Source: Arthrobacter sp. 35W (GTDB lineage Bacteria; Actinomycetota; Actinomycetes; Actinomycetales; Micrococcaceae). From it: a stretch of DNA of 64,000 nt. Both the position numbers and the translations under genes were made by a program. The notes under the pieces are model-generated. The model did no database searches, had not been told where the DNA came from, and was given only the letters and a program-made list of their open reading frames with translations. Shown here one piece after another: positions 11,562-55,451 of the stretch (position 1 is its first letter; every line of letters begins with the position of its first letter). The stretch spans positions 434,001 to 498,000 of the forward strand of contig NZ_KI519454.1 of NCBI RefSeq assembly GCF_000482545.1, given 5' to 3'.

Positions 11562-11577
11562 TTCCACATTATGGAAA
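11562..11577. promoter_or_regulatory. Purine-regulon box 1 (upstream of allantoin permease)
   Basis: TTCCACATTATGGAAA lies 90 bp upstream of the permease start. It matches the 33075 copy at 14 of 16 positions. Dyad ends are TTCCA / TGGAA. See the boxes at 15586, 33075, 38413, 38519, 39406, 51008 and 55436. Confidence 0.7.
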
Positions 11578-11666
11578 TCAAATCTCCTATTGCGAAACTA
11601 GTCGAATCTATTTACAGTTGTGTTCAACCTCACATCGAGGAGCGGAACTAAAGATCGGCCCCCAAA

Positions 11667-13253
11667 ATGACTTTCACACCAGGGCAAACGCCCCTTGCGG
11701 ATGAAGCTGCGGAACCCCAGCCCGGGGGCCGCCGCCGCCAGATGCACGAGCACATCGACCACATCATGCATGCTCCGCCGTCGCACGGACTGGCCTCGGC
11801 CAACCTGCCGCCCACGAGCCCGCAGCTCTACAACCAGGACCTCGCCCCGACGCAGACCGCCGGACGCCGCTGGACCGCCTACAGCATCTTCACCCTGTGG
11901 GCCAACGACGTTCACTCCCTCGGGAACTACGGCTTCGCCCTGGGCCTGTTCGCCCTGGGCCTGGGCGGCTGGCAGATCCTGCTGGCCCTGGGCATCGGGG
12001 CCATCCTGCTCTTCGCCCTGCTGAACTTCTCCGGCTTCATGGGCCACAAGACCGGCGTCCCGTTCCCGGTCATGAGCCGCATCGCCTTCGGCATCCACGG
12101 CGCCCAGATCCCGGCCCTGATCCGCGGCGCCGTCGCGATCGCCTGGTTCGGCATCCAGACCTACCTGGCCTCCCTGGTCCTGCGCGTGCTGCTGATCGCC
12201 CTGGTCCCCTCGCTGAAGGAGATGGACACCAACTCCATCCTGGGCCTGTCTTCCCTGGGCTGGATCACCTTCATCGGCCTGTGGATCATCCAGGTCTTCA
12301 TCGTCTCCTACGGCATGGACATGATCCGCAAGTACGAGGCCTTTGCCGGCCCCGTCATCCTCGTCACCATGGTCTCCCTGGCCGTGTGGATGTTCTTCCA
12401 GGCCGGATCCTCCATCTCCTGGTCCACCGACAACGCCCTGCAGGGCGGGGACATGTGGCGTGAAATCTTCGGCGCCGGCGCCCTGTGGGTCTCCATCTAC
12501 GCCACATTCGTGCTGAACTTCTGCGACTTCACCCGCTCCTCCAAGACCCGCAAGTCCATCGTCAAGGGCAACTTCTGGGGCATCCCGATCAACACCCTCC
12601 TGTTCGGCGGCATCGTCGTCGTCCTCGCCGGCGCCCAGTACCGGATCAACGGCCAGATCATCGCCAGCCCCTCGGACATTGTCGAGACCATCCCGAACAC
12701 GTTCCTGCTGGTGATGGCCGCCCTGGCCCTGCTGATCCTCACCGTCGCCGTGAACCTGATGGCCAACTTCGTCGCCCCGATCTACGCCCTGACCAACCTG
12801 TTCCCGAAGCGGCTGAACTTCCGCCGCGCCGGCCTGATCAGCGCCCTCATCGGCCTGGTCATCCTGCCCTGGAACCTGTACAACAACCCCGCCGTCATCG
12901 TGTACTTCCTCGGCGGCCTGGGCGCCCTGCTCGGCCCGCTGTTCGGCGTGATCATGGCCGACTACTGGCTGATCCGCAAGGCCAAGGTCAACGTCCCCGA
13001 GCTCTACACGGAGGTCAAGGACGGCGCGTACTTCTACAAGAACGGCTTCAACCCGCGCGCCATCATCGCCTTCGCCGTCGCCGCGACGATCTCCCTGCTG
13101 ATCGCCTTCGTCCCGGCCCTGGCCGCCCTGTCCTCCTTCTCCTGGTTCTTCGCCGCCGGCATCGCCGCGATCGTCTACCTGGCCATCGCGGACCGCAACC
13201 GCACCTTCCACGACGTCTCCGGCGAGCCCATCGCCGTCCCCAGCGTCCACTAG
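11667..13253 (+). CDS. pucI: NCS1-family allantoin/hydantoin-type permease
   Basis: 528 residues with about 12 hydrophobic helices and a roughly 70-residue polar N-terminus. The stretch from YNQDLAPT through WANDVHSLGNYGFALG to GFMGHKTGVPFPVMSR is the NCS1 (nucleobase:cation symporter-1) pattern of PucI and Mhp1. It is expected to bring allantoin, or a related hydantoin, across the membrane with a cation. The racemase-like gene and allantoinase follow 34 bp and about 870 bp downstream, which supports allantoin as substrate. Regulation is likely through the IclR-type box at 11562. The ATG at 11667 has only a weak ribosome site; GAGGAG is about 25 nt away. Confidence 0.88.
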   Translation: MTFTPGQTPLADEAAEPQPGGRRRQMHEHIDHIMHAPPSHGLASANLPPTSPQLYNQDLAPTQTAGRRWTAYSIFTLWANDVHSLGNYGFALGLFALGLGGWQILLALGIGAILLFALLNFSGFMGHKTGVPFPVMSRIAFGIHGAQIPALIRGAVAIAWFGIQTYLASLVLRVLLIALVPSLKEMDTNSILGLSSLGWITFIGLWIIQVFIVSYGMDMIRKYEAFAGPVILVTMVSLAVWMFFQAGSSISWSTDNALQGGDMWREIFGAGALWVSIYATFVLNFCDFTRSSKTRKSIVKGNFWGIPINTLLFGGIVVVLAGAQYRINGQIIASPSDIVETIPNTFLLVMAALALLILTVAVNLMANFVAPIYALTNLFPKRLNFRRAGLISALIGLVILPWNLYNNPAVIVYFLGGLGALLGPLFGVIMADYWLIRKAKVNVPELYTEVKDGAYFYKNGFNPRAIIAFAVAATISLLIAFVPALAALSSFSWFFAAGIAAIVYLAIADRNRTFHDVSGEPIAVPSVH

Positions 13254-13287
13254 CACCCCCGGCACCACAACACGAAGGAAACAAGAC

Positions 13288-14025
13288 ATGCGAATCCTCG
13301 TCGTCAACGTCAACACCACGCAGTCCATGACCGATTCGATCGCCGCCCAAGCCCGGGCCGCAGCGGCACCCGGCACGGAAATCGTGGGGCTGACACCGAA
13401 GTTCGGTGCCGAGTCCTGTGAAGGAAACTTCGAGAGCTACCTGGCCGCCATCGCCGTCATGGACGTGGTGCTGTCCTACCCGGAACCGTTCGACGCCGTC
13501 ATCCAGGCAGGCTACGGGGAGCATGGCCGTGAGGGCCTCCAAGAATTGCTGGACGTTCCGGTCGTGGACATCACCGAGGCAGCCGCCAGCACCGCGATGT
13601 TCCTGGGCTACAAGTACTCCGTCGTCACCACGCTGGACCGCGCGGTGCCGCTGATCGAAGACCGCCTCAAACTTGCCGGACTTGAGGCGCGCTGCGCCTC
13701 GGTGCGGGCCAGCGGCATGGCCGTTCTGGAGCTCGAAGAAGAGCCGGAGCGGGCCGTGCAGGCCATCGTCGACCAGGCGGAGAAGGCTGTCAATGACGAC
13801 AAGGCCGAAGTCATCGTTCTGGGCTGCGGCGGCATGGCGGGCCTGGACGACCAGGTCCGCGCCAGAACCGGTGTTCCGGTGGTCGATGGCGTCGCCGCCG
13901 CCGTCACCATCGCCGAATCCCTGGTGCGGATGGGGCTCTCCACCTCCAAGGTCCGCACCTACGCCGCACCCCGGCCCAAGAAAGTCATCGGCTGGCCCAT
14001 GTCGGCCCAGCCGGTCTCTTCCTAG
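13288..14025 (+). CDS. Asp/Glu/hydantoin racemase family protein (probable allantoin racemase)
   Basis: 245 residues. The family racemises hydantoins or allantoin with two cysteines, so that both allantoin enantiomers reach allantoinase. Family features are the start MRILVVNVNTT, the C-terminal LGCGGMAGL with Cys180, and VPVVDGVAAAV. The first catalytic Cys, normally in an A-C-[FY]-G segment, is replaced: here VIQAGYGEHG, Gly75. Cys44 in AESCEGNFE is the only other nearby cysteine. The protein may therefore use a changed mechanism or a different reaction such as decarboxylation or isomerisation. GAAGGA precedes the ATG. It sits between permease and allantoinase. Confidence 0.8.
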   Translation: MRILVVNVNTTQSMTDSIAAQARAAAAPGTEIVGLTPKFGAESCEGNFESYLAAIAVMDVVLSYPEPFDAVIQAGYGEHGREGLQELLDVPVVDITEAAASTAMFLGYKYSVVTTLDRAVPLIEDRLKLAGLEARCASVRASGMAVLELEEEPERAVQAIVDQAEKAVNDDKAEVIVLGCGGMAGLDDQVRARTGVPVVDGVAAAVTIAESLVRMGLSTSKVRTYAAPRPKKVIGWPMSAQPVSS

Positions 14026-14067
14026 CAACCGCTTCCGCAGAGAACAATATCCAACCAAGTGCTTGAG

Positions 14068-14098
14068 TGGGCGGCCGTCGGGAACCGGCGGCTGCCCA
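14068..14098 (+). other. Intra-operon RNA hairpin before allantoinase
   Basis: A 14-bp stem (14068-14081 with 14085-14098, two G-U pairs) with a very short loop lies in the 101-nt gap between the racemase-like gene and allantoinase. There is no U tract. It may protect the 3' end of the upstream message or tune allantoinase expression. Confidence 0.45.
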
Positions 14099-14126
14099 TC
14101 CACCATTCGAACAAGGGAAAAGTTAA

Positions 14127-15479
14127 ATGTCTGAATCATCCAAGCCCCAGTTTGACCTGGTCTTTCGGGGCCAGCGCATACTCACCACCGCGGGCATCGT
14201 TGCCCGTGAAGTGGGTGTGCGCGACGGGTTGATTGCCGCGATTGAGCCGTTGGGCAACGGTCTGGAGGGTGCCCAGATCATCGAACTGGCCGACGACGAG
14301 ACGTTGATCCCGGGCCTGGTGGACACCCATGTCCACGTCAACGAGCCCGGCCGCACCGAGTGGGAGGGGTTTGCCTCCGCCACCCGTGCCGCGGCCGCCG
14401 GCGGCGTCACCACCATCATCGACATGCCGCTGAACAGCATTCCGCCGACCACCAATGTCGAGGCCCTGCGCCTGAAGCGCTCGGTGGCCAAGGACCAGGC
14501 GTTCGTTGATGTCGGATTCTGGGGCGGTGCGATCCCGGGCAACAAGAAGGACCTCCGCGGCCTTCACGACGAGGGCGTCTTCGGCTTCAAGTGCTTCCTG
14601 CTGCACTCCGGCGTGGATGAGTTCCCCCACCTGGAAGCGGACGAGATGGAGGAGGACATGGCAGAGCTGAAGTCCTTCGACTCCGTCATGATCGTCCACG
14701 CCGAGGATTCCCGTGCGATCGACAGGGCCCCCTCCGCCGAGGGCGACCACTACGACAAGTTCCTGCACTCCCGCCCCCGCGGCGCGGAGAACATCGCCAT
14801 CGCCGAGGTCATCGAGCGGGCCCGCTGGACGGGTGCCCGCGCCCACATCCTGCACCTGTCCTCCTCCGATGCGCTGCCGATGATCGAATCGGCCAAGGCC
14901 GACGGCGTGCACCTGACGGTGGAAACGTGTCCGCACTACCTGACGCTGACCTCCGAAGAGATCCCCAACGGAGCCACCGCCTTCAAGTGCTGCCCGCCCA
15001 TCCGTGAGGCCAGCAACCGCGAAAAGCTCTGGAAGGGCCTGGAGGACGGGCTCATTGACTGCATCGTCACCGACCACTCGCCGAGCACCCTGGACCTCAA
15101 GGACCTGGAAAACGGCGACTTCGCAGTGGCCTGGGGCGGCGTTTCCTCGCTGCAGCTTGGCCTGTCGCTGATCTGGACCGAGGCACGCAAGCGCGGCATC
15201 GCCCTGGAGAAGGTCCTCAACTGGATGTCCAAGCGTCCGGCGGAGCTGGCCGGCCTGCACCGCAAGGGCCAGCTGGCCCTGGGCTTCGACGCCGACCTGG
15301 CCGTCTTTGCCGCCGACGATGCGTACGTCGTCGACGTCACCAAGCTCAAGCACAAGAACCCGATCACGCCGTACGCCGGCAAGGCGCTCTCCGGGGTCGT
15401 CCGCAAGACGTACCTGCGCGGTGGGCTGATCGATGGGGAGACCCCCACCGGCAAGCTCCTGCGCCGCGGCGAACTCTAG
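14127..15479 (+). CDS. allB: Allantoinase
   Basis: 450 residues of the cyclic amidohydrolase family, which opens the hydantoin ring of S-allantoin to allantoate. The metal centre is readable: DTHVH (His68, His70), the carbamylated Lys155 in FGFKCF, His191 in VHAED, His243 in ILHLSS and Asp316 in VTDHSPS. The DTHVHVNEPGRTEWEGF segment separates allantoinase from dihydropyrimidinase and dihydroorotase. The ATG at 14127 follows AAGGGA. It ends the permease-racemase-allantoinase unit and is followed by a strong terminator. Confidence 0.95.
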   Translation: MSESSKPQFDLVFRGQRILTTAGIVAREVGVRDGLIAAIEPLGNGLEGAQIIELADDETLIPGLVDTHVHVNEPGRTEWEGFASATRAAAAGGVTTIIDMPLNSIPPTTNVEALRLKRSVAKDQAFVDVGFWGGAIPGNKKDLRGLHDEGVFGFKCFLLHSGVDEFPHLEADEMEEDMAELKSFDSVMIVHAEDSRAIDRAPSAEGDHYDKFLHSRPRGAENIAIAEVIERARWTGARAHILHLSSSDALPMIESAKADGVHLTVETCPHYLTLTSEEIPNGATAFKCCPPIREASNREKLWKGLEDGLIDCIVTDHSPSTLDLKDLENGDFAVAWGGVSSLQLGLSLIWTEARKRGIALEKVLNWMSKRPAELAGLHRKGQLALGFDADLAVFAADDAYVVDVTKLKHKNPITPYAGKALSGVVRKTYLRGGLIDGETPTGKLLRRGEL

Positions 15480-15514
15480 AGGCATTGTTGCGGCTGCTTT
15501 GGTGCAGCCGCCGG

Positions 15515-15550
15515 AATCCGGCACCAACCCCTGTGGGTTGGTGCCGGATT
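15515..15550 (+). terminator. Terminator after allantoinase
   Basis: A perfect 16-bp stem (15515-15530 with 15535-15550) with the 4-nt loop CTGT, followed by GCGTTT, 35 bp after the allantoinase stop. Confidence 0.8.
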
Positions 15551-15585
15551 GCGTTTAGGGACCGAGCACGCCACAACTGTTCATA

Positions 15586-15601
15586 TTCCACTAAGTGGAA
15601 A
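15586..15601. promoter_or_regulatory. Purine-regulon box 2 (upstream of E2 acyltransferase)
   Basis: TTCCACTAAGTGGAAA contains a perfect 7-1-7 palindrome (TTCCACT-A-AGTGGAA, 15586-15600), the most symmetric copy of the box. It lies about 190 bp upstream of the E2 start codon. Confidence 0.65.
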
Positions 15602-15788
15602 CATTTATCCAAAATCTGACGTAAGATGGTTCCACAACAGGGATGGACCACGCTGCAGCCCGCCTGCAGTGGTCCGCGATGACGTGCAGTCCCGTGGCCC
15701 AGCGCCGCGGCATGGTGCTCCAACGACGGAGGGCTGTGGCAGTCCGCGGACGCGGCACTCCTTCCCACCTGCACAGAATGAGGCCCCT

Positions 15789-17177: not shown

Positions 17178-17211
17178 ACGCGGAGGGGAACCGCCAAACG
17201 GTTGAACGGCA

Positions 17212-17252
17212 GGGGCCGTGCGGAAACAGTCGGACTGTTTCTGCACGGCCCC
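17212..17252 (+). terminator. Terminator after the E2 gene
   Basis: A stem of about 19 bp with one mismatch (17212-17230 with 17234-17252) and a CGG loop is followed by TCCTTTGT, 34 bp after the E2 stop. Confidence 0.8.
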
Positions 17253-17297
17253 TCCTTTGTGGCATCACTCAGCGTTGAGCCAAGGGAAGATGGGGCA

Positions 17298-17552: not shown

Positions 17553-17576
17553 CAGCCCGGCCCGCAGACCAGCTAT

Positions 17577-28248: not shown

Positions 28249-29406
28249 TCAGGCGTGGGTTGGTTCCACGCTCTGGGCCAAAGCGGCAAACTCGGTGCCG
28301 ATCCGGCTGCCCACCTCGATGAGCAGCCGGCCGGCCTCTGCCATGCAGACGCTGACATCGGGCTCGATCTCCGTCAGTGCATAGACGGAATGGAATCCGG
28401 CCCCCACCAGCTGGCTGAGGGTCAGGGTGGTCCGCCCGCAGACGGCAATGATCGGCACATTCGCGGCAGCGGCGCTGAGCGCCACGCCCATGGGTGCCTT
28501 GCCGCCCAGGCTTTGGGCATCAAGGCTGCCCTCGCCGGTGATGACAAGATCCGCCCCGTCCAGGCGCTGCGGCAGGGCCGTGAAATCAAGGATGACGTCG
28601 ATCCCGGGACGGCGCTCGGCACCGAGCACCGTCAAGGCGGCGTAGCCCACGCCACCGGCGGCACCGGAACCCGGCGCCTCCATGTGCGTGACGCCGTCGG
28701 TGCCCAAGTGGTTGGAGACGCCGCGGTAGAGGCGTTCAAGCCCCTTTTCCAGCAGGTCGATGTCCGAGGAGGAGGCACCCTTCTGCGGGCCGAAGACTGC
28801 TGCTGCACCCTCCGGGCCGAGCAGGGGATTGTCGACGTCGCTGGCCAGGACAAACTTTGTCTTGGCCACACGCGGGTCCAGGCTGCTGAAGTCCATGTCC
28901 CACAGGCGCTCAAGGAACCCACCGCCGTCGGCGAGGCGGCGGCCGTCGCAGTCGAGCAGCCGCACGCCCAGGGCGCTGATCAGCCCGGCGCCGCCGTCGG
29001 TGCAGGCACTGCCGCCGACACCGAGGGTGATGGCGGTGGCGCCGGCATCCAGTGCGGCGAGGATCAGTTCCCCGGTGCCGCGGCTGGAGGACCGCAGCGG
29101 CTCAAGCTGGTCCTGCGGCAGCACCGCAAGGCCGGAGGCGAGGGCCATTTCAATCACTGCCTCCTGGCCGCGGACGGCGAAGTCCGCGGCCAGGGGTTCT
29201 CCGGTGGGACCGGAGACAGTGACGGTGCGGCGGGTGAAGCCGCTTCCCACGGCGGCGTCGAGGGTTCCCTCGCCGCCGTCGGCAACCGGAATGCGCTCCA
29301 CCGTGACATCCGCCAGAACGGTCTTCAGACCGATTTCCAGATACTGGCAGACCTCTGGTGCCGACAGGGAGCCTTTGAACTTGTCAGGAGCAACGATGAT
29401 GCGCAT
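28249..29406 (-). CDS. glxK: Glycerate 2-kinase
   Basis: 385 residues of the GarK/GlxK family, which phosphorylates D-glycerate to 2-phosphoglycerate and feeds glyoxylate carbon into glycolysis. The start MRIIVAPDKFKGSLSA, VADGGEGT, LGVGGSACTDGGAG and ITGEGSLDAQSLGGKAP are family signatures. It is the last gene of hyi-glxR-gcl-glxK, 11 nt after the gcl stop. Confidence 0.95.
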   Translation of the reverse strand: MRIIVAPDKFKGSLSAPEVCQYLEIGLKTVLADVTVERIPVADGGEGTLDAAVGSGFTRRTVTVSGPTGEPLAADFAVRGQEAVIEMALASGLAVLPQDQLEPLRSSSRGTGELILAALDAGATAITLGVGGSACTDGGAGLISALGVRLLDCDGRRLADGGGFLERLWDMDFSSLDPRVAKTKFVLASDVDNPLLGPEGAAAVFGPQKGASSSDIDLLEKGLERLYRGVSNHLGTDGVTHMEAPGSGAAGGVGYAALTVLGAERRPGIDVILDFTALPQRLDGADLVITGEGSLDAQSLGGKAPMGVALSAAAANVPIIAVCGRTTLTLSQLVGAGFHSVYALTEIEPDVSVCMAEAGRLLIEVGSRIGTEFAALAQSVEPTHA

Positions 29407-29417
29407 TCGGGTACCTT

Positions 29418-31196
<1,779 letters not shown>

Positions 31197-31273
31197 GGTG
31201 TGCTCCTAAAAAGTTTGTGTGTGGTGCAAAAGTGGTGTTGGGCCTGGGCCCGGAGGTCAGAGACCCGGTGTGG

Positions 31274-32152
31274 CTACTTGCGGCCGCTGAGCTGCAGGAC
31301 CTGCTTGAAGAGGCCCGAGTGGTCTAGTGCGCCGTCGCCCTGGTTCACGGTGGCGGCAACGAGCTGTGCGACGACGGCGCCGAGGGGGACGGCGACGTTG
31401 GCTTCGCGGGCTGCGGCGGTGACGATGCCGAGGTCCTTGTGGTGCAGGGCCAGGCGGAAGCCGGGGTCGAAGTTGCGGTCGAGCATCTTCTGGCCCTTCT
31501 GGTCCAGGACCTTGGAGCCGGCCAGGCCGCCGCCGAGGACCTTCAGTGCTGCGTCGGTGTCCACGCCGTAGGCCTCAAGGAAGGCGATGGCCTCGCCGAG
31601 GACCTGGATGTTGACGGCGACGATCAGCTGGTTGGCTGCCTTGACGGTCTGGCCGGAACCGGCCGGGCCGACGTGGACGATGGTCTTGCCGACGGCGGTG
31701 AGAACGGGCTGGGCTGCCTCGAAGTCGGCGGCCTCGCCGCCGACCATGATGGACAGGACGGCGTCAATGGCGCCCTGTTCGCCACCGGAGACCGGGGCGT
31801 CAAGGGCGCGCACGCCGGCGACCTTGGCGTACTCGGAGAGTCGCTTGGCAACATCGGGGCGGATGCTGCTGGCATCGATCCAGAGTGCACCGGGCTTGAC
31901 GTTGGCGAAGACGCCGTCGGCGCCGAGGACGACTGCCTCAACATCGGGGGAGTCCGGCACCATCGTGATGACAACGTCGGCGTCCTTGACGGCGTCGGCG
32001 ATGCTGGTGGCGGCACGGCCGCCGGCGGCTGCCAGCTTGTCGATGGCCCCCTGGCTGCGGTTGTAGCCGCTGACCGTGTGGCCGGCCTTGACCAGGTTGG
32101 TGGCCATGGGCAGGCCCATGATTCCGAGACCGATTACTGCAACGTTCGTCAT
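31274..32152 (-). CDS. glxR: Tartronate semialdehyde reductase
   Basis: 292 residues of the beta-hydroxyacid dehydrogenase family; reduces tartronate semialdehyde to D-glycerate with NAD(P)H. It has GLGIMG (8-13) for the dinucleotide, SGGEQGA (122-128) for substrate and catalytic Lys171 in KAANQ. AAAGGA precedes the ATG. It lies between hyi and gcl, with a 77-nt gap before gcl. Confidence 0.95.
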   Translation of the reverse strand: MTNVAVIGLGIMGLPMATNLVKAGHTVSGYNRSQGAIDKLAAAGGRAATSIADAVKDADVVITMVPDSPDVEAVVLGADGVFANVKPGALWIDASSIRPDVAKRLSEYAKVAGVRALDAPVSGGEQGAIDAVLSIMVGGEAADFEAAQPVLTAVGKTIVHVGPAGSGQTVKAANQLIVAVNIQVLGEAIAFLEAYGVDTDAALKVLGGGLAGSKVLDQKGQKMLDRNFDPGFRLALHHKDLGIVTAAAREANVAVPLGAVVAQLVAATVNQGDGALDHSGLFKQVLQLSGRK

Positions 32153-32200
32153 GAGAAGTCCTTTGTGGAAGAAGAGCGGGGGAGGGGGAAGACGGGTGTC

Positions 32201-33007
32201 TTAGCCGGCCTGGCTGGTGCTGCGCTGGCGGATGGCCCAGGAGAAGGCCTCGGCTGCGGGGGCCTTGTATTCCAGACCGATGTAGCCGTCGTAGCCGAGT
32301 TCACGGCTGCGGGCGATCCATTCACCGAGGGGGAGTTCGCCGGTGCCGGGGGCGCCGCGGCCGGGGTTGTCGGCAATCTGGATGTGGCCGAAGTCCTTGG
32401 CATGGTTCTCGATGACAGCTGCCACGTCGTCGCCGTTGACGGCCAGGTGGTAGAAGTCGGCGAGCAGCTTGACGTTGTCCACTCCGCCGGCCTGGGTCTT
32501 GGCGAGAACGTCCAGAACATCCTGGGCCGTCTTCAGCGGGTAGGCGGGGGTGCCGGAGACCGGCTCCAGCAGGACGGTGCCGCCGATGCGGGCGACGCCG
32601 GTGGCTGCGGCAACCAGGTTGGCCACGGCCAGTTCGTCCTGCTCCTGGGCGGAGGCGCCGTCCTGGCGGTTGCCGTAGAGGGCGTTGAAGGCCTTGCAGC
32701 CCAGACGCTCGCCGATGCCTGCAACAACATCGATGTTGTCCTTGAACTCGGCGTCGCGGCCAATCCAGGACACCAGGCCCCGGTCGCCGGCAGGCATGTC
32801 GCCGGCGTTGAAGTTCAGGCCGGTCAGCTGTACGCCGGCGTCGGTGATGGCCTTTTCAAAGGCATTGACGTCCTTGTCGGAGGGGACGGATTCGGCGAAG
32901 GGCCACCAGAACTCCACGGCTTCGAAGCCTGCAGCCTTGGCCGCTGCGGGGCGTTCCAGCAGGGGGAGCTCGGTGAGGAGGATGGAGCAGTTCACTGTGT
33001 AGCTCAT
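32201..33007 (-). CDS. hyi: Hydroxypyruvate isomerase
   Basis: 268 residues of the xylose-isomerase-like TIM barrel family. Hyi interconverts hydroxypyruvate and tartronate semialdehyde. Metal ligands are readable in LEPVSG, LADFYH, HIQIAD and GLEYK. The start MSYTVNCSILLTELPLLERP is the typical one; AAGGAAGGA precedes the ATG at 33007, so a longer frame to 33070 is rejected. First gene of the operon, directly below the regulon box at 33075. Confidence 0.93.
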   Translation of the reverse strand: MSYTVNCSILLTELPLLERPAAAKAAGFEAVEFWWPFAESVPSDKDVNAFEKAITDAGVQLTGLNFNAGDMPAGDRGLVSWIGRDAEFKDNIDVVAGIGERLGCKAFNALYGNRQDGASAQEQDELAVANLVAAATGVARIGGTVLLEPVSGTPAYPLKTAQDVLDVLAKTQAGGVDNVKLLADFYHLAVNGDDVAAVIENHAKDFGHIQIADNPGRGAPGTGELPLGEWIARSRELGYDGYIGLEYKAPAAEAFSWAIRQRSTSQAG

Positions 33008-33074
33008 GGGGTTCCTTCCTTGGGCCGGCCCGCTCTGTGGAGGAGAGGGGAGGACTGGCCCGCGATTCAAAGTA

Positions 33075-33090
33075 TTTCATATTATGGAAA
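33075..33090. promoter_or_regulatory. Purine-regulon box 3 (upstream of the hyi-glxR-gcl-glxK operon)
   Basis: TTTCATATTATGGAAA, the copy closest to the consensus, lies 67 bp upstream of hyi. Read on the minus strand it contains CATAAT, which could be the -10 element, so a protein bound here would cover the promoter. Confidence 0.75.
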
Positions 33091-33174
33091 GTAACTTCTG
33101 TCTTATGAAAATAATAGGTTGATGGCGCGGTGTCGTCAACCCCGTGACAGAACAAACACCACTCCAACGACTAC

Positions 33175-33247: not shown

Positions 33248-34063
33248 CTAGGTGAGGCGGATCTGGCGGTTCATGTCCTTGTACAACAGGTAGCGGAACT
33301 CGCCCGGGCCGCCGGCGTAGCAGGCCTGCGGGCAGAAGGCGCGCAGCCACATGAAGTCGCCGGCCTCCACCTCAACCCAGTCGTTGTTGAGCAGGTACAT
33401 GGCCTTGCCCTCCAGGACGTACAGGCCGTGTTCCATGACGTGGGTCTCCGGGAACGGGATGACCCCGCCCGGCTGGAACGTCACGATGTTGACCTGCATG
33501 TCGTGGGCCAGATCGGAGGAATCCGTGAATCGGGTGGTCTTCCAGGCGCCGTTGGTGTCCGGCATCGCTGTCGGTTCGACTTCGGCGTCGCTGGTGACGA
33601 AGGACTTTGCCTCGTAGCCCTCAAGGCGCTCGTAGGCCTTGCGGATCCACTGGAAGGAGACGATGTCATCCGAGACGTTTTCCAGACCCCAGTTGGAGCC
33701 GGCGGCAAGGTAGGCGTAGCCGCCTTCCTCAAGCTGGTGGAGTTCGCCGTCGAGGGTCAGGTTGACCTTGCCCTTGGTGACGAAGACGACGCCTTCGACG
33801 CCGGCTTCGAACTCGGCCTTGGGTGCGCCGCCGCCGGGGGCGATTTCCACGATCAGCTGCGAGAACGTGGTGGCAAAGCCGGAGATCGGCCGGGCCAGGA
33901 TCCAGGAGCGGCTGTTGGTGAAGCCAGGCAGGGTGCTGGTCACGATGTCGGTCATAACGCCCTTGGGAATGACCGTGTAGGCCTCCGTGACGATGGCCCG
34001 CTCCGTGGTGAGGTGCGTCTGCGGCGGCAGGCCGCCTTGCGGGTAGTAGTAATTGCCCATCAT
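33248..34063 (-). CDS. allE: (S)-ureidoglycine aminohydrolase
   Basis: 271 residues, bicupin. The enzyme releases ammonia from ureidoglycine to give S-ureidoglycolate, the step after allantoate amidohydrolase. The C-terminal cupin carries the Mn2+ site: FPETHVMEHGLYVLEGKA, then LLNNDWVEVEAGDF and the end LLYKDMNRQIRL; these match the E. coli YlbA pattern closely. Two adjacent ATGs (34063, 34060) share the ribosome site TAAGGA. Last gene of the malic enzyme operon. No allantoate amidohydrolase is present in the window to supply its substrate. Confidence 0.92.
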   Translation of the reverse strand: MMGNYYYPQGGLPPQTHLTTERAIVTEAYTVIPKGVMTDIVTSTLPGFTNSRSWILARPISGFATTFSQLIVEIAPGGGAPKAEFEAGVEGVVFVTKGKVNLTLDGELHQLEEGGYAYLAAGSNWGLENVSDDIVSFQWIRKAYERLEGYEAKSFVTSDAEVEPTAMPDTNGAWKTTRFTDSSDLAHDMQVNIVTFQPGGVIPFPETHVMEHGLYVLEGKAMYLLNNDWVEVEAGDFMWLRAFCPQACYAGGPGEFRYLLYKDMNRQIRLT

Positions 34064-34070: not shown

Positions 34071-35342
34071 TTACTTAGAAGTGGAGTGTGCCAGCCGCGG
34101 GTGTGCCAGTGCGGTCAGCTGGGAAAGGTCGATGCCGACCAACGACTGGACCTCGTCGGTCCCGACGGCGCCGCACTGGACACCGCGCAGAACGAAGGCG
34201 GCCAGGGCGCGGGCGGTGGCGGGCTCGTCCATGACGCTGCCTTCCACACGCTCGACGTAGTTGCGAAGGCGCGCCGCCGCGGCCGGCAGGCCCTGGCGGT
34301 AGAAGGCGTACGTGGCCAGGAAGCGCGTGGGCAGCTGGGCCTGGTGCAGGTCCCAACCCTGGTAGTAGCCGCGTTCCAGCGAGCGGCGGACCAGACGGCC
34401 GTGCAGCTTCCAGGCGTCCTCTATGCCGTCACCCATCGGGATGACGTTGGTGGAGCCGTCGGAGAGGCGGATGCCCGTGCCGGCCACGGCAAGCTGCATG
34501 ACCTCCTTGGCGAAGTCCGCCACCGGGTGCTCCATCGACTGGTACTCGGCGGAGATCTGCAGCGAGGCGCTGTAGTCGTAGGTCCCGTAGTGCAGTGCGG
34601 AGATCCGCCCCGGCACCACATGCGGCAGCTGGGCCACCGGCGAGGTGCCCTCGGGTCCGAGGATCAGCTGCGGGGTCTCGACCTGCACCTCGAAGCGGAG
34701 CCGTCCGGCCCCCAGGCCGTGGATCTGCTCCAGGCGGCCGACGGCGAAGTCCATCGCCTTGACCTGGGCCACCGTGGTGACCTTGGGCAGGGTCAGGACC
34801 AGGCCCTCGGGCAGCTCGCCGGCGCGGGCCAGCGTGGAGACAAAGAGATCCAGCGTGCGCAGACCGCGGTCCCGGGTGGGTGCCTCGAAGCACTTGAACC
34901 GGATGCCGATGAACGGCGGGGCGGTGCCGGCGGCCACGGCTGCGGCCACCTGCTCGGCGGCGGCAACGGCCGCCGCATCCTCGACGTCGTCGCCGCGGTC
35001 GCCGAAGCCGTCCTCAAAGTCCAGACGCAGATCCTCGATCGGCTCGCTGGCCAGCTTGGCCGCAACGCGGCCGGTGATCTGGGCGGCCAGCTCGTCGTCG
35101 AACCCCAGCAGCGAGGCCAGACGGTCCAGACCGCCGTGGGCATCTGCCGTGGCCTGGGCCTCGGCGCCCCACTGTGCCACGAAGCCGGTGTTGAACCTGT
35201 CGGCCGGCACGTAGACGGTGTGGATCGGCTGGCGGCTGCCGTCGTCGCCCGGGTAGCCGCGTTCCAGCAGCGTGTCCGTGCCCTCCAGCGAGGAATTGAT
35301 GAACTTCAGATCCGAGGGATCCAGGGATGGTGTGGTCGCCAT
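34071..35342 (-). CDS. DUF6986-type protein, HpcH/CitE-like TIM barrel
   Basis: 423 residues. It resembles the aldolase/citrate-lyase superfamily: LRLDFEDGFGDRGDD carries the acidic metal motif, KCFEAPTRDRGLRTLDLF and LTLPKVTTVAQV look like the CoA-ester lyase barrel strands, and VQVETPQLILGP supplies a Glu. I recall such proteins next to malate synthase in actinobacteria as DUF6986, with no proven reaction. It starts 2 nt after the malate synthase stop and ends 7 nt before allE, so it is translationally coupled within glyoxylate metabolism. A malyl-CoA lyase-like or thioesterase role on a malate synthase intermediate is speculative. Confidence 0.75.
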   Translation of the reverse strand: MATTPSLDPSDLKFINSSLEGTDTLLERGYPGDDGSRQPIHTVYVPADRFNTGFVAQWGAEAQATADAHGGLDRLASLLGFDDELAAQITGRVAAKLASEPIEDLRLDFEDGFGDRGDDVEDAAAVAAAEQVAAAVAAGTAPPFIGIRFKCFEAPTRDRGLRTLDLFVSTLARAGELPEGLVLTLPKVTTVAQVKAMDFAVGRLEQIHGLGAGRLRFEVQVETPQLILGPEGTSPVAQLPHVVPGRISALHYGTYDYSASLQISAEYQSMEHPVADFAKEVMQLAVAGTGIRLSDGSTNVIPMGDGIEDAWKLHGRLVRRSLERGYYQGWDLHQAQLPTRFLATYAFYRQGLPAAAARLRNYVERVEGSVMDEPATARALAAFVLRGVQCGAVGTDEVQSLVGIDLSQLTALAHPRLAHSTSK

Positions 35343-35344: not shown

Positions 35345-36943
<1,599 letters not shown>

Positions 36944-38361: not shown

Positions 38362-38412
38362 TGATGTTCCTCCTTGGAGTGACCCGGTGGGGACCGGATC
38401 GTCAGCATTAGT

Positions 38413-38428
38413 TTTCGTATTATGGATA
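38413..38428. promoter_or_regulatory. Purine-regulon box 4 (upstream of the malic enzyme operon)
   Basis: TTTCGTATTATGGATA lies 51 bp upstream of the malic enzyme start, in the 207-bp gap shared with the divergent iclR gene. Confidence 0.7.
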
Positions 38429-38518
38429 TTATTATCTATCTGGTGGAAACACAAGCACTTCATGACGACGTCTCGTCAAGGGGTTGAAGTGGTGGTATAT
38501 CTTGGGATCAGGTCAAAT

Positions 38519-38534
38519 TTTCACGATGTGGATA
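38519..38534. promoter_or_regulatory. Purine-regulon box 5 (upstream of iclR, autoregulation)
   Basis: TTTCACGATGTGGATA lies 34 bp upstream of the IclR start codon, where binding would block its own transcription. A second short TTTC-N6-GAAA dyad (TTTCTTCACGAAAC) follows immediately. Confidence 0.6.
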
Positions 38535-38568: not shown

Positions 38569-39336
38569 ATGGCGGGAAAAACTGCTGGCGGAGTCCAATC
38601 GGTGGAACGCGTTTTCGAGCTTCTTGAGCTGATCACCGACGCCGGGGGAGAGGTGACGCTCTCTGAATTGGCCGGTTCCACCGACCTTCCGCTGCCCACG
38701 ATCCACCGGTTGCTGCGCACGCTGGTGTCGCTGGGCTATGCCCGGCAGCTGCCCAACCGCCGCTACGCCCTGGGCCCGCGGCTGATCCGCATCGGCGACG
38801 GCGCAAGCCGGCAGCTGGGCGCACTGGCGCGGCCGCAGCTGGCATCGCTGGTGAAGGCGCTGGGCGAAACGTCCAATATGGCGATGCTCGACGGCGACAT
38901 GGTGGTCTACATCGCCCAGGTCCCCTCCGCGCACTCGATGCGCATGTTCACCGAGGTCGGCCGACGCGTCCACACCCACGCCTCCGGCGTGGGCAAGGCG
39001 ATCCTGGCCCAGCTCGATGACGAGACGGTCCGCGGGATTGTGGCCCGGGCCGGCATGCCGACGCCCACCGAGAAGAGCATCGGCAACGTCGAGGACCTGC
39101 TGGTGGATCTGCAGAAGATCCGCGAGCGGGGCTACTCCATTGATGACAACGAGCAGGAGATCGGCGTGCGCTGCTACGCCATGGGCATCCCCGGCGCCCC
39201 CACCCCCACCGCCATCTCCGTGTCCGGGCCGGTGTCGCGCGTGGATGATTCCTTTGCGGAGCGGGCCATTCCGCTGCTGCGTGCCGCCGCCCTGGAGGTT
39301 GCTGCGGCGCTGGACTACGAGGAAAAGGCGTCCTAG
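38569..39336 (+). CDS. IclR-family regulator (AllR-like), probable master regulator of the purine cluster
   Basis: 255 residues. Winged helix at about 8-65 (SVERVFELLELITDAGGEVTL, PTIHRLLRTLVSLGYARQ), then the IclR effector domain with THASGVGKAILAQL and IGVRCYAMGIPGA. AllR in E. coli and Streptomyces belongs to this family and senses glyoxylate or allantoate. The gene sits at the centre of the purine/glyoxylate genes, divergent from the malic enzyme operon, and eight copies of one partly palindromic box lie at the cluster promoters. Whether it represses or activates is not settled by sequence. CTAGGAG precedes the ATG. Confidence 0.92.
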   Translation: MAGKTAGGVQSVERVFELLELITDAGGEVTLSELAGSTDLPLPTIHRLLRTLVSLGYARQLPNRRYALGPRLIRIGDGASRQLGALARPQLASLVKALGETSNMAMLDGDMVVYIAQVPSAHSMRMFTEVGRRVHTHASGVGKAILAQLDDETVRGIVARAGMPTPTEKSIGNVEDLLVDLQKIRERGYSIDDNEQEIGVRCYAMGIPGAPTPTAISVSGPVSRVDDSFAERAIPLLRAAALEVAAALDYEEKAS

Positions 39337-39397: not shown

Positions 39398-39405
39398 TTT
39401 AAAAG

Positions 39406-39421
39406 TTTCATGATGTGAGAG
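39406..39421. promoter_or_regulatory. Purine-regulon box 6 (upstream of guaD)
   Basis: TTTCATGATGTGAGAG is the weakest right half-site of the set. It lies 18 nt upstream of a possible -35 (TTGATT, 39440-39445). Confidence 0.5.
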
Positions 39422-39439
39422 TCGATTTCCGAAAAACCA

Positions 39440-39617
39440 TTGATTTGGGTCACTCATCGGTGTTACTGTCGTCACAGCCAAGGCGGGCACCCGGCAATCG
39501 GGAGCTATCTACCAGGCGCAACTTAACCTTCAATGAATAAGCTGCCAGGTAGTGGTGTCGACCCGTCCAAGACACGTCCCATCCCTGCTCTGGCGGCTTC
39601 GAAGCCTAGGAATCGCC
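39440..39617 (+). promoter_or_regulatory. guaD promoter and structured 5' leader
   Basis: A possible promoter (TTGATT at 39440, extended -10 TGTTACTGT at 39461-39469) would give a leader of about 140 nt. The leader can fold: CTACCAGGC (39510-39518) pairs with GCCAGGTAG (39544-39552) except for one A-A mismatch, after a GGGAGCTATCTACC segment that resembles the J2/3 core of purine riboswitches. The loop sequences expected of that riboswitch are absent, so identity is unproven. Confidence 0.4.
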
Positions 39618-48107: not shown

Positions 48108-50849
<2,742 letters not shown>

Positions 50850-50959
50850 ATCCGGCCTTTCATGCTTGTGGGGTTGGTGGATTTGTCGTCCAGTTCCCCA
50901 TGGATGGTTCACGACCGGACCAAAGTGGGTCGCGTTCCGGCCATGTCCTTAGGATGAGG

Positions 50960-50988
50960 ATCATGAACCGGTGTCCCCGGGCTGTCAC
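50960..50988 (-). promoter_or_regulatory. Candidate aceE promoter
   Basis: Read on the minus strand, GTGACA (50983-50988) and CATGAT (50960-50965) are 17 nt apart, with an expected transcript start about 100 nt before the aceE GTG. The regulon box at 51008 would lie about 19 nt upstream of the -35. Confidence 0.4.
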
Positions 50989-51007
50989 ACCATTGGGACG
51001 GCTATGA

Positions 51008-51023
51008 TTTCATTATATGGAAG
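51008..51023. promoter_or_regulatory. Purine-regulon box 7 (between aceE and the SDR gene)
   Basis: TTTCATTATATGGAAG lies in the divergent gap, 158 bp before aceE and 72 bp before the SDR gene, and could serve both. Confidence 0.65.
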
Positions 51024-51095
51024 AAAACTTTCATTTCTAAGATGTTACGTCAAAGTGTACGCGCCTGGGAAGACGCTGAAGAGGAGTTGTTGAGT

Positions 51096-51854: not shown

Positions 51855-51921
51855 CCGGCACACCTGCGGCGGACACCACGAGCCGGGCATCCGCCGTCGT
51901 GCACAAAGCCGCATTAAAGAA

Positions 51922-51981
51922 CACTGGAGCGGCGTCCCTTCCCCGATCGGCCCAGATGAGGGAGGGGGCGCCGCCCCAGTG
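51922..51981. terminator. Terminator-like inverted repeat between the SDR and permease genes
   Basis: Arms CACTGG-GCGGCG and CGCCGC-CCAGTG (with an extra base) flank a loop of about 27 nt between two convergent genes. Confidence 0.45.
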
Positions 51982-52006
51982 CAGATCCAGTCGTCGACTA
52001 CTGGTT

Positions 52007-53491
<1,485 letters not shown>

Positions 53492-53605
53492 TTTTGAGGA
53501 CCTCCTTGTCCTTGGGCACGCCGACGGCGGCGGTCCCGGTACCGCTGAATGGGTCGACGGATGGTGGGCACCCGCGCAGCGGCGGGTGCCCACTCGTCAT
53601 GACGT

Positions 53606-54508
53606 TTAGCAGAAGCCGGCGATGCCGTCCCAGGCGTTGCCCGCGTCGGGGGCATCCTCGCGCAGCACAGTAGCCTCGATCAGGCCGTAGGGGCGGTCGG
53701 CGGCGTAGAAGACCTCATTGGGGTTGTCCAGTCCAAACGGGGAGAGGTCCACCAGGAAGTGGTGCTTGTTGGGCATGGAGAACTTGATCTCTTCAATCTC
53801 CGGGTGCGCCAGCAGGACCTTCTGGCCCATGTCGAAGAGGGTCTGCTGCAGGGCGTGGGAGTACCGCTCCGTGAACCCTTCCAGCAGCAGCGCCTTCACA
53901 TCCGAGTAGGACTTGTTGAAATCGACGTCCGTGGTGTTGAAGCGCCACCGGGCGGAGACGTCGGTGGCCAGGATCCGGTCGGTGGTCTCGGCCAGGGTGG
54001 TGTACTGGTCCTTCGGGTAGCCGACAAAGCCCGATTGCGTGGTCTTCAGGACGGTGAGGTCCTTGAGCCCGGCAATGACATGCGTCTGGTCGCCGTCCTT
54101 GACGACGACGGCGGTGCGGACCTCCTGGCCGTTGCGGACGAAGGAGTGGTCGTGGCCGACGCCGCCGGCCTGGATGCGGTCCCAGGAGTACGACTCGGCC
54201 TCCCAGCGCCCACCGGAAACCCAGTCAAAGCTGGAGGTGAAGTGGTCCGCCAGGCGCAGCAGGAACGCCTCGGGCGAGCCCACGCCGTCGCGGGCCAGGG
54301 CGTAGACCGTGTTCTTTTGGGTGTCGGTGGCCACCACATGGGCGTTGTCGCCCGTGAGGTGGGCGTCGGTGAAGTCGCCGCGCAGCTGGGAGGTGACGTT
54401 GAGGTCTTCGATCTCGTGGCGGTCCGTGTTGCGGGTGACCTTGACGAGGCGGACCTCCGCCTTGCCGTACTGGTTGGCGCCCAGGATGATCTTGCTGTTT
54501 TCGCTCAT
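53606..54508 (-). CDS. Uricase (urate oxidase)
   Basis: 300 residues, two T-fold domains. NQYGKAEVRLVKVTRN holds the catalytic Lys; VVATDTQKNTVY the Thr; ATDVSARWRFNT and SMPNKHHFLVDL follow; the end WDGIAGFC matches the Arthrobacter globiformis-type uricase. It oxidises urate to 5-hydroxyisourate and peroxide without cofactor. The ATG is 2 nt after the HIU hydrolase stop. The gene order uraD-uraH-uricase-permease gives a complete urate-to-allantoin unit. Confidence 0.97.
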   Translation of the reverse strand: MSENSKIILGANQYGKAEVRLVKVTRNTDRHEIEDLNVTSQLRGDFTDAHLTGDNAHVVATDTQKNTVYALARDGVGSPEAFLLRLADHFTSSFDWVSGGRWEAESYSWDRIQAGGVGHDHSFVRNGQEVRTAVVVKDGDQTHVIAGLKDLTVLKTTQSGFVGYPKDQYTTLAETTDRILATDVSARWRFNTTDVDFNKSYSDVKALLLEGFTERYSHALQQTLFDMGQKVLLAHPEIEEIKFSMPNKHHFLVDLSPFGLDNPNEVFYAADRPYGLIEATVLREDAPDAGNAWDGIAGFC

Positions 54509-54510
54509 GA

Positions 54511-54852
54511 TTAGTTGCCTCGATATGTGGAGTAGGAGAAGGGGCTCAGCAGCAGCGGGACATGGTAGTGGTCCTCGCCGGCTGTAACGGTGAAGGTCAG
54601 GACGACCTCGGGGAAGAACGTTTCCGTGGCAGTGCGGGCAAAATAGGCTCCGGTGCCGAAACGCAGTTGGTAGGTGCCCGGCGCCAGGACCTCAGGTCCC
54701 AGCTCGGGGATCCGGCCGGCGTCGTTGGTCACCCCGGCCGCAAGGTGCGTCCAGGTGGTGCCATCGGCGGCGAAAAGCTCGACGGCGACACGCGCCGCGG
54801 GCTTGCCGGAGGAGGTGTCCAGAATGTGGGTGGTCACATGCGAAACGCTCAT
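54511..54852 (-). CDS. uraH: 5-Hydroxyisourate hydrolase
   Basis: 113 residues, transthyretin-like. The N-terminal VTTHILDTSSGKPA and the C-terminal YSTYRGN (YRG[ST]-type end) carry the catalytic His/Arg motifs, and DHYHVPLLLSPFSY the second His. It opens HIU to OHCU. Its ATG overlaps the uraD stop (ATGA). Confidence 0.96.
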   Translation of the reverse strand: MSVSHVTTHILDTSSGKPAARVAVELFAADGTTWTHLAAGVTNDAGRIPELGPEVLAPGTYQLRFGTGAYFARTATETFFPEVVLTFTVTAGEDHYHVPLLLSPFSYSTYRGN

Positions 54853-55346
54853 GCGGCCACCGCTCCTTCCAGGCGCAGGACGGCAATCTCGCGAAGCTGC
54901 TGGGCCACGACGGCCAGTTCAACCTCGGGTGGATTCTCCAGGCGCTTGTTGAGCGAGCCCAGGATGTCCGTGGCGCTGCGTCCGGCCGCCCGGATCAGGA
55001 AGACCCGGCCGAATTTGGACTCGTAGGCCGCATTCCCCTCGGCGATGGCCGCCAGGATGGCCGGATCCTCGCCGGAGACCCGTGCCTGCTCCGCTGCAGA
55101 CAGTTTGGCCTCCGTGGAGGTGCCGGCAGCCTTCTGGCCGATCCGGGGGTGGTGCGCCAGGGCCGATTCGATCTCGGGGATCGTGAAGGGATCTGCAGCG
55201 ATCCTGGCGGAGTCGAGAAGTGCTTCCCGGCTCGAATAGGGGCGGTCATCGATGATCCCATCGATCCACCGTTGGATATCGAGGCAGGGTCGGAGCACTT
55301 TTTCCAGCTCCACACGCGCGGCCTCGTTGCATTGTTCAAGCAACAT
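54849..55346 (-). CDS. uraD: OHCU decarboxylase
   Basis: 165 residues, all-helical. Catalytic His66 lies in AHHPRIGQKA, and YESKFGRVFLIRAAGRS is the family signature. It makes S-allantoin from OHCU. The ATG at 55346 has AAGGAA upstream; a frame extending to 55373 starts without a ribosome site. First gene of the urate operon, below the box at 55436. Confidence 0.94.
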   Translation of the reverse strand: MLLEQCNEAARVELEKVLRPCLDIQRWIDGIIDDRPYSSREALLDSARIAADPFTIPEIESALAHHPRIGQKAAGTSTEAKLSAAEQARVSGEDPAILAAIAEGNAAYESKFGRVFLIRAAGRSATDILGSLNKRLENPPEVELAVVAQQLREIAVLRLEGAVAA

Positions 55347-55435
55347 GGTGTTCCTTGCGACAGATACTGGCATCCACGGCGTGGGCTATACGGAACGGCC
55401 GGTCCTGGGACTCGGCTGACTCTGGTTGGTCAAGG

Positions 55436-55451
55436 TTTCGTATCGTGGAAC
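55436..55451. promoter_or_regulatory. Purine-regulon box 8 (upstream of the uraD-uraH-uricase operon)
   Basis: TTTCGTATCGTGGAAC lies 89 bp upstream of uraD; a second weak TTTCAGTATGTGTAAT follows. Confidence 0.6.

What the first reader, a model, noticed from the sequence alone, without database searches (positions are those of the whole stretch)
11562..55451. One 16-bp box in front of eight purine/glyoxylate transcription units: a probable IclR regulon
Copies read TTCCACATTATGGAAA (11562), TTCCACTAAGTGGAAA (15586), TTTCATATTATGGAAA (33075), TTTCGTATTATGGATA (38413), TTTCACGATGTGGATA (38519), TTTCATGATGTGAGAG (39406), TTTCATTATATGGAAG (51008) and TTTCGTATCGTGGAAC (55436). All are intergenic, and one precedes each of the allantoin permease, E2, hyi, malic enzyme, iclR, guaD, aceE/SDR and the uricase operon. 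The IclR protein at 38569 lies in their midst and has a box in its own promoter. Seeing the box: direct. Assigning IclR: inference. In some promoters the box overlaps a -10-like sequence, in others it lies upstream of a possible -35, so repression and activation both stay open.
Basis: partly seen in the sequence, partly recalled or inferred. Interest (0 to 1): 0.82.

Follow-up and report, generated by a model that had tools for sequence, protein, structure and literature searches.

The report
Shared repressor sites controlling purine breakdown
A soil actinobacterium of the Arthrobacter kind carries the same DNA switch, often a pair of sites 21 bases apart, in front of its genes for breaking down uric acid and burning the glyoxylate left over, including a private copy of a central metabolic enzyme.

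Summary
All eight boxes are present as written. A matrix built only from promoters of related genomes ranks all eight among its 11 best window hits; at 14 bits or more the window has 10 hits, 440 kb of control DNA from the same genome 3. The box is the 17-bp palindrome WTTYCRYAWTRYGRAAW, a published IclR-family type. In 73 held-out loci, 300 of 303 sites lie outside recognised genes. Two further tandem operators elsewhere precede NCS1 (allantoin-type) permeases; two others precede other IclR-type genes. The gene at 38569 is the best candidate regulator, an AllR-type protein whose orthologues in eight Streptomyces-like genomes keep the same boxes. Promoter overlap favours repression. Newer points: the boxed genes include second copies of pyruvate dehydrogenase E1 and E2 beside malate synthase and malic enzyme, which could close a glyoxylate-oxidising cycle; and the second E1 gene stays nearly identical to the housekeeping copy. 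Binding and effector are untested.

The parts
11561..11598 (+). Tandem operator before the allantoin permease gene (allP, 11667): sites 11561-11577 and 11582-11598
   Evidence: 23.8 + 10.9 bits with the relatives-only matrix
15585..15622 (+). Operator before the E2 gene: strong site 15585-15601, weak partner 15606-15622
   Evidence: 22.6 + 5.9 bits
15789..17177 (+). Dihydrolipoamide acyltransferase (E2), SucB_Actino family; second E2 of the genome
   Evidence: TIGR02927 553.6 bits over cutoff 423; start by SD; paralogue 68% identical at C1:859880
33074..33111 (-). Tandem operator before the hyi-glxR-gcl-glxK run: sites 33074-33090 and 33095-33111, abutting a promoter-like TTGACG-N17-TATTAT (33139-33111)
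   Evidence: 28.4 + 16.2 bits; promoter; 28 of 31 held-out hyi genes have a site
38412..38449 (-). Tandem operator before malic enzyme (start 38361); run maeB-aceB-DUF6986-UGlyAH
   Evidence: 24.5 + 15.5 bits; 49 of 54 held-out maeB
38518..38534 (+). Operator of iclR itself; no partner at 21 bp
   Evidence: 22.6 bits; 68 of 74 held-out iclR
38569..39336 (+). IclR-family regulator, AllR type (candidate repressor)
   Evidence: HTH_IclR and IclR_C domains; 55-79% identical to 17 aligned orthologues; effector pocket residues
39405..39442 (+). Weak operator before guaD (39618): 39405-39421 and a weak partner 39426-39442
   Evidence: 13.8 + 3.5 bits; 15 of 17 held-out guaD have a site
51007..51044 (.). 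Operator between aceE (leftward) and an SDR gene (rightward, start about 51096); partner 51028-51044 very weak
   Evidence: 22.6 + 0.5 bits; box upstream of 9 of 10 second aceE copies compared, 0 of 12 housekeeping or single copies
48108..50912 (-). Pyruvate dehydrogenase E1 (aceE), second copy
   Evidence: TIGR00759 1374 bits; 99.4% DNA identity over 2692 bp with the copy at C1:2238011
55435..55472 (-). Tandem operator before the uricase run (OHCU decarboxylase, HIU hydrolase, uricase, xanthine permease): 55435-55451 and 55456-55472
   Evidence: 15.0 + 16.9 bits; 16 of 21 held-out ohcud
34071..35342 (-). DUF6986 protein in the maeB run; weakly malate-synthase-like model, function unknown
   Evidence: PF22484; model and fold search
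35345..36943 (-). Malate synthase A (aceB)
   Evidence: TIGR01344 745 bits
36958..38361 (-). Malic enzyme
   Evidence: PF00390/PF03949; start by SD
28249..33007 (-). hyi, tartronate semialdehyde reductase, glyoxylate carboligase, glycerate kinase (glycerate pathway)
   Evidence: NCBIfam

Best explanation
The boxes are operators of one purine/allantoin/glyoxylate regulon run by the IclR-family protein at 38569, an AllR-type repressor. Shown by sequence: one palindrome (WTTYCRYAWTRYGRAAW), often as a pair with 21 bp between centres, sits before the permease, uricase, guanine deaminase, glyoxylate, malate synthase/malic enzyme, E2, E1 and iclR genes, and is conserved before most of these in relatives. 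Inferred: two dimers (a tetramer) bind the pair on one face of the DNA, cover the promoter and block transcription; glyoxylate, or allantoin/allantoate, releases the protein. Derepression makes purine uptake and degradation, the glycerate pathway, and a closed cycle glyoxylate + acetyl-CoA -> malate (AceB) -> pyruvate (malic enzyme) -> acetyl-CoA (AceE + E2), which burns glyoxylate to CO2.
For: Relatives-only matrix finds the boxes. The palindrome also emerges without imposed symmetry. 21-bp pairing: 7 of 8 window boxes; 103 partner hits at 21 bp for 139 sites in relatives, next spacing 4; 200 for 303 sites in held-out loci, next 26 (a pair of two strong sites counts twice). 300 of 303 held-out sites outside recognised genes. 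Off-locus operators before a near-identical copy of allP and before another NCS1 permease. Consensus equals the IclR-family WTT-11-AAW type. Of five IclR residues that contact glyoxylate oxygens four are conserved (G140, D192, S217, S219) and A161 is V141. Promoter overlap at hyi, uricase run, maeB. gcl was found in 24 relatives, all of which have the regulator. Second aceE copies have the box (9 of 10), housekeeping or single copies do not (0 of 12).
Against: No binding or expression data. Other IclR proteins exist (seven HTH_IclR hits of 42 bits or more, this one included) and tandem sites of the same type stand before two of the other HTH hits: C1:1497744/1497765 (17.5 + 11.7) and C1:2300014 (13.5 + 12.9, in the control DNA). 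iclR's own box has no 21-bp partner and the aceE/SDR partner is marginal. In held-out loci aceE has a box directly upstream in only 4 of 18, sdr 2 of 16, allP 4 of 8; some of these aceE genes lie at the end of a boxed uricase run, others have no visible box. Exact-consensus counts per genome barely separate family members with (22) and without (13) the regulator: mean 3.6 versus 2.2, p 0.04; within the genus p 0.18. The guaD operator lies at or upstream of the likely -35.
Confidence: 0.86

Rival explanations
1. The boxes are real operators, but a different IclR paralogue of the genome, or two paralogues with overlapping motifs, bind them.
For: 31 HTH_IclR hits in the genome, seven of 42 bits or more; tandem sites of the same type stand before the HTH hits at C1:1497857 and C1:2300072.
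Against: This iclR lies in the cluster, its promoter carries a box in 68 of 74 held-out cases, and in eight Streptomyces-like loci the orthologue keeps the boxes in a different gene neighbourhood.
Confidence: 0.09
2. The IclR protein is an activator, or activates some units (guaD, perhaps others) and represses the rest.
For: guaD operator ends at the likely -35 in the window and in relatives' rows; the IclR family includes activators and dual regulators (PMC8222616 passages).
Against: At hyi the operator begins at the end of the likely -10 in 17 of 18 rows shown; the uricase run and maeB have likely promoter cores abutting or inside the operator.
Confidence: 0.15
3. The boxes are chance or shared-ancestry resemblance without function.
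For: The sites are AT-rich in a GC-rich genome; training and test genomes are related.
Against: Control DNA, exact 21-bp phasing, near absence inside recognised genes, absence upstream of genes that are mostly internal to runs (gcl 0 of 22, pbuX 0 of 29, uglyAH 0 of 36) and of housekeeping aceE.
Confidence: 0.01

Closest known systems
AllR of Streptomyces coelicolor (Navone et al. 2015, AEM; paper not held, known from recall and from a sentence and citation in PMC12772271)
   Same: IclR-family repressor of allantoin genes; Streptomyces-like orthologues of our protein are 59-62% identical and have boxes, mostly with a weaker partner at 21 bp, before allB/iclR and aceB
   Different: Here the boxed units also hold uricase, guanine deaminase, malic enzyme, a PDH E1 and an E2; the published S. 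coelicolor motif could not be compared
Escherichia coli AllR / IclR
   Same: Allantoin or glyoxylate genes, IclR family, four of five glyoxylate-oxygen contacts conserved
   Different: Motifs are KTTGGAAWAWTWTTCCAAC and TGGAAATNATTTCCA (PMC8222616 Table 1), half-sites in the opposite arrangement; NCBIfam scores far below those cutoffs
BhcR of Paracoccus denitrificans
   Same: IclR family, glyoxylate metabolism; best NCBIfam match (187 bits, cutoff 350)
   Different: Controls the beta-hydroxyaspartate cycle (PMC11323563 passages); below the family cutoff
IclR-family motif class WTT-11-AAW (Suvorova and Gelfand 2021)
   Same: Same consensus; tandem spacing within the reported 18-22 nt
   Different: A motif class; no Arthrobacter purine regulon in the parts read

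Membership tests
IclR-family transcription factor | N-terminal HTH_IclR and C-terminal IclR_C domains | tested here: met
   PF09339 62.9 bits, PF01614 120.4 bits
IclR-family transcription factor | Group 1 binding motif and 18-22 nt tandem spacing | tested here: met
   (motif assigned to this protein by inference)
Streptomyces-type AllR regulon | Orthologous regulator beside allantoin/malate synthase genes with the same operators | tested here: met
   8 of 8 Streptomyces-like loci taken; genus inferred from an 88.6% match of one of them to a named Streptomyces
Streptomyces-type AllR regulon | Demonstrated binding and derepression by a pathway metabolite | not testable with these tools
   no experiment possible
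E. coli AllR (NF007548) | Score above the curated cutoff | tested here: not met
   112.7 bits against 406
E. coli AllR | Motif KTTGGAAWAWTWTTCCAAC | tested here: not met
   motif found is TTYC..GRAA
BhcR (NF045644) | Score above the curated cutoff | tested here: not met
   187.1 bits against 350
IclR/AllR glyoxylate-binding pocket | Gly160, Ala161, Asp212, Ser239, Ser241 (IclR numbering) | tested here: inconclusive
   4 of 5 conserved; A161 is V141, as BhcR has Ile

The most novel reading that the evidence does not exclude
An AllR-type repressor in Micrococcales commands a complete private glyoxylate-oxidation cycle (malate synthase, malic enzyme, and paralogous pyruvate dehydrogenase E1 and E2) alongside purine degradation; the E1 copy is kept nearly identical to the housekeeping gene by gene conversion while its promoter stays separate; and the DUF6986 protein of the operon supplies the missing ureidoglycolate-cleaving, glyoxylate-releasing step.
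Probability: 0.3. Interest if true: 0.68.

Novelty: new variant of a known kind. Interest (0 to 1): 0.52.

Why it matters
It turns eight noted boxes into a defined, testable regulon across Micrococcales, with operator geometry and promoter overlap. It suggests that these soil bacteria treat purines as fuel: the switch that opens uric acid degradation would also make enzymes to burn the glyoxylate carbon. Duplicate aceE genes with near-identical bodies but different promoters offer a natural case for studying gene conversion against regulatory divergence. DUF6986 becomes a candidate for a missing enzyme.

Tried and rejected
Rejected: chance origin of the boxes. Rejected: DUF6986 as the only malate synthase of clusters that lack aceB; 12 of 12 genomes searched (ten whose locus lacks or seemed to lack aceB, two with it for comparison) have malate synthase matches far over the Pfam cutoff. 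Weak: counting exact consensus matches per genome as a test of co-occurrence with the regulator. Not possible: a test on genomes with gcl but without iclR, because none of the relatives searched was of that kind. No published description of this regulon, of the PDH link or of aceE gene conversion turned up in the held open-licence library, nor any paper naming DUF6986; a 2025 paper on allantoin-inducible glyoxylate use in Pseudomonas (PMC12694930) was seen only in the listing. The site at C1:265393 (19.7 bits) has no tandem partner and lies among ORFs two of which gave no Pfam hit; left unassigned.

Rows dropped before counts: 23 maeB regions left out of training because they share the iclR intergenic region; 7 of 80 named loci left out as copies of training contigs; genes whose match began after query residue 60 were not counted, so E2 was never counted there, aceE pairs of G007, G026 and G031 were left out because they are fragments; the own genome and the genomes outside the family were left out.
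Full report
WHERE IT IS. The window is bases 434001-498000 of contig C1 of a 4.66-Mb genome of four contigs.

THE OBSERVATION. All eight 16-mers are present as written. They lie before the allantoin permease, an E2 gene, hyi, malic enzyme, iclR, a guanine-deaminase-type gene (a cytidine-deaminase-fold protein whose best named match is TadA, below cutoff), an aceE/SDR divergent pair, and the OHCU decarboxylase-HIU hydrolase-uricase-xanthine permease run.

IS IT MORE THAN CHANCE? I took 28 neighbourhoods of iclR matches from other genomes, cut out 106 upstream regions of 11 gene types (gene hits), dropped 23 maeB regions that overlap the iclR ones, and ran an EM motif search on the other 83, of which 27 are iclR regions. 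The window was not used as sequence, only its proteins to find genes. The result, WTTYCRYAWTRYGRAAW, also appeared without imposed symmetry. In the window the eight boxes and three tandem partners (55456, 33095, 38433) are the 11 highest hits. Control DNA (400 kb of spread stretches plus 40 kb flanking the window): at 14 bits 3 hits in 440 kb against 10 in the 64-kb window; at 12 bits 11 against 13; at 5 bits 149 against 40. Genome-wide, the pattern WTTYCRYNNNRYGRAAW has 2 exact places, both in the window, and 44 places with at most one mismatch, 6 of them in the window; the same pattern read backwards, as control, has 11.

TANDEM OPERATORS. Seven of eight boxes score above zero for a second copy at exactly 21 bp; no other spacing from 15 to 45 does so for more than one of eight. 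Four are strong pairs (allP, hyi, malic enzyme, uricase), three are weak (E2, guaD, aceE/SDR), and iclR has none. In the relatives, which include the training regions, 139 sites gave 103 partner hits at 21 bp and at most 4 at any other spacing; two strong partners count twice. By a tandem score the window has 8 pairs and the 440-kb control 2, one of them 58 bases before another HTH_IclR hit at C1:2300072. Suvorova and Gelfand report tandem IclR-family sites with 18-22 nt between centres, mainly 19-21, and the motif class WTTYCRYW3RYGRAAW (PMC8222616; abstract, first part of the results and passages read).

HELD-OUT TEST. A scan of named genomes gave 80 loci; 7 repeat training contigs. In the other 73, 303 sites reach 14 bits; 300 lie outside recognised genes though these genes fill 47% of the bases (binomial p about 1e-77, which ignores relatedness and the base composition of genes). 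Genes with a site just upstream: iclR 68 of 74, maeB 49 of 54, hyi 28 of 31, guaD 15 of 17, ohcud 16 of 21, uox 17 of 33, allP 4 of 8, aceB 10 of 45, aceE 4 of 18, glxK 5 of 24, allB 3 of 16, sdr 2 of 16, glxR 1 of 27, DUF6986 1 of 39; gcl 0 of 22, pbuX 0 of 29, uglyAH 0 of 36, hiuH 0 of 14, xdhAB 0 of 9, xdhC 0 of 16, xdhFAD 0 of 10, the permease of the xdh run 0 of 16, the racemase-family gene next to allP 0 of 5. The zero rows are mostly genes inside runs. The low aceE count partly reflects aceE standing at the end of a boxed uricase run (Brevibacterium, Kocuria), but in several Microbacterium loci no box is visible. These genomes are related to the training set, so this is not a fully independent sample.

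ELSEWHERE IN THE GENOME. I scored 45 places from the pattern searches and looked at stretches around those of 16.6 bits or more outside the window. Two 21-bp pairs stand out: C1:2092396/2092417 (21.0 + 13.6 bits) just before a permease gene whose DNA is 99.1% identical over 1465 bp to the window's allP, and C2:1859530/1859551 (16.6 + 19.4) before another NCS1 permease. A third pair, C1:1497744/1497765, stands before another IclR gene and is probably that paralogue's own operator. Six further single sites of 16.9-19.7 bits have no partner.

THE REGULATOR. The 38569 protein has HTH_IclR and IclR_C domains. Its best NCBIfam matches are BhcR, IclR and PcaR/PcaU, all below cutoffs. Mapped through the alignment to E. 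coli IclR and the contact table of PMC11323563 (passages), the residues that bind glyoxylate oxygens are G140, V141 (Ala in IclR, Ile in BhcR), D192, S217 and S219; the patch that meets the methyl group of pyruvate is S123, M126, V134 and V200, against Leu, Met, Leu, Leu. Glyoxylate as effector is therefore plausible, not shown. At E 1e-30 the regulator is found in 27 of 58 genomes searched, own included. gcl occurs in 24 relatives, all of which have the regulator; G034 has the regulator without gcl, and G056 has only a 32% match. In eight Streptomyces-like genomes the 59-62% identical orthologue lies by allB and aceB, each with a box (13.5-22.2 bits between allB and iclR, 14.1-15.2 before aceB); partners are weaker (up to 11 bits), but the best partner is at 21 bp for 14 of 16. 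The genus is inferred from an 88.6% match of one of them to a named Streptomyces. S. coelicolor AllR is the likely namesake; that paper was not held and I saw only a sentence and citation elsewhere.

HOW IT WORKS. Aligned promoters (at most 20 rows a gene) show, at hyi, TTGAC followed after 17 nt by a -10-like hexamer that ends at the first or second base of the operator, in 17 of 18 rows including the window (TTGACG-N17-TATTAT, also found by a promoter scan). At the uricase run TTGAC stands 27-33 nt before the operator in all 6 rows. At malic enzyme the first site fills the gap between a TTG-type -35 and a TAATAT-like -10 in the window and 8 of 19 other rows; 8 rows show the iclR-side site instead and 3 differ. 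An occupied operator would block RNA polymerase: repression. At guaD the operator ends at a likely -35, so either sign is possible there. Promoter elements are consensus readings, not mapped starts.

WHAT IT CONTROLS. Besides purine uptake, uricase, allantoinase and the glycerate pathway, the boxed units hold malate synthase, malic enzyme, a pyruvate dehydrogenase E1 (TIGR00759) and an E2 of the SucB_Actino family (that this family serves as the PDH E2 in actinobacteria is recalled). With a shared E3 these would turn glyoxylate into CO2 through malate, pyruvate and acetyl-CoA, the dicarboxylic acid cycle of Kornberg (recalled). Both E1 and E2 have other copies in the genome: E1 98% identical, E2 68%. 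In several relatives E2 follows allB at the end of the hyi run, which independently ties it to the regulon. Arthrobacter sp. Rue61a grows on allantoin and glyoxylate, and its authors found no obvious genes for allantoate conversion (PMC3534580 passages).

THE TWO aceE GENES. Which copy is 'housekeeping' I inferred from place: the other lies in or near the purine cluster (nine genomes) or about 43 kb from iclR (G006). In these 10 genomes the second copy has a box of 17 bits or more upstream in 9; the exception, G027, stands behind a boxed uricase run. None of 12 housekeeping or single copies reaches 14 bits; the best is 13.5, single, 354 bp away, in the window's own genome. Within a genome the two copies share 97.8-99.6% of bases in 7 genomes (91.5, 85.7 and 84.1% in the others); between genomes the most is 89.4% (two single copies), leaving aside the close pair G001/G022. 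Conserved neighbourhood with such identity points to gene conversion; repeated recent duplication is the alternative.

DUF6986. The gene at 34071-35342 lies between ureidoglycine aminohydrolase and malate synthase. A model (mean pLDDT 83.6) matches malate synthases best, but weakly: E 4e-4, query TM 0.28-0.46, rmsd about 20 A. The genome has no match to the Pfam ureidoglycolate lyase at E 0.01, so the protein is a candidate for that step. Speculative.

VERDICT. A real regulon of a known kind (AllR/IclR), well supported by sequence, extended in content and operator anatomy, with binder, sign and effector still to be tested.

Noticed in passing
48108-50912 and G000:C1:2238011-2240761: Two aceE genes 99.4% identical in DNA over 2692 bp with no match in the flanks compared; same pattern in relatives, suggesting gene conversion.
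   Followed up: partly
11667-13253 and L088:10503-12014: A second allantoin permease gene, 99.1% identical over 1465 bp, with its own tandem operator, elsewhere in the genome.
   Followed up: partly
34071-35342: DUF6986 protein with a weakly malate-synthase-like model, conserved beside ureidoglycine aminohydrolase; candidate for a missing ureidoglycolate-cleaving enzyme.
   Followed up: partly
33248-34063: Cupin protein scores above the cutoff for a bifunctional allantoicase/(S)-ureidoglycine aminohydrolase model (NF040771, 459 against 350 bits).
   Followed up: no
56264-56301: Weak tandem pair (10.4 + 7.5 bits, 21 bp apart) inside the 5' end of an AhpC/TSA gene near iron-uptake genes (FTR1, imelysin).
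   Followed up: no
L157:9587-12016 and L088:8407-9318: PEP-mutase/isocitrate-lyase-family genes lie next to or near both off-locus NCS1 permeases; possible further members of the regulon.
   Followed up: no
L118:14-51 (G000:C1:2300014) and G000:C1:1497744-1497781: Tandem sites of the same type just before two other IclR-type HTH hits, probably operators of those paralogues.
   Followed up: partly
G021:C2:116506-117249 (L079): A second copy of the regulator (75% identical) on a contig of the same length as a named Arthrobacter dokdonellae plasmid, with no recognised target genes within about 10 kb.
   Followed up: no
G351, G352, G353 (Microbacterium genomes): Malate synthase matches of about 191-196 bits in open frames of 868-884 codons, perhaps a fused or distinct form.
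   Followed up: no
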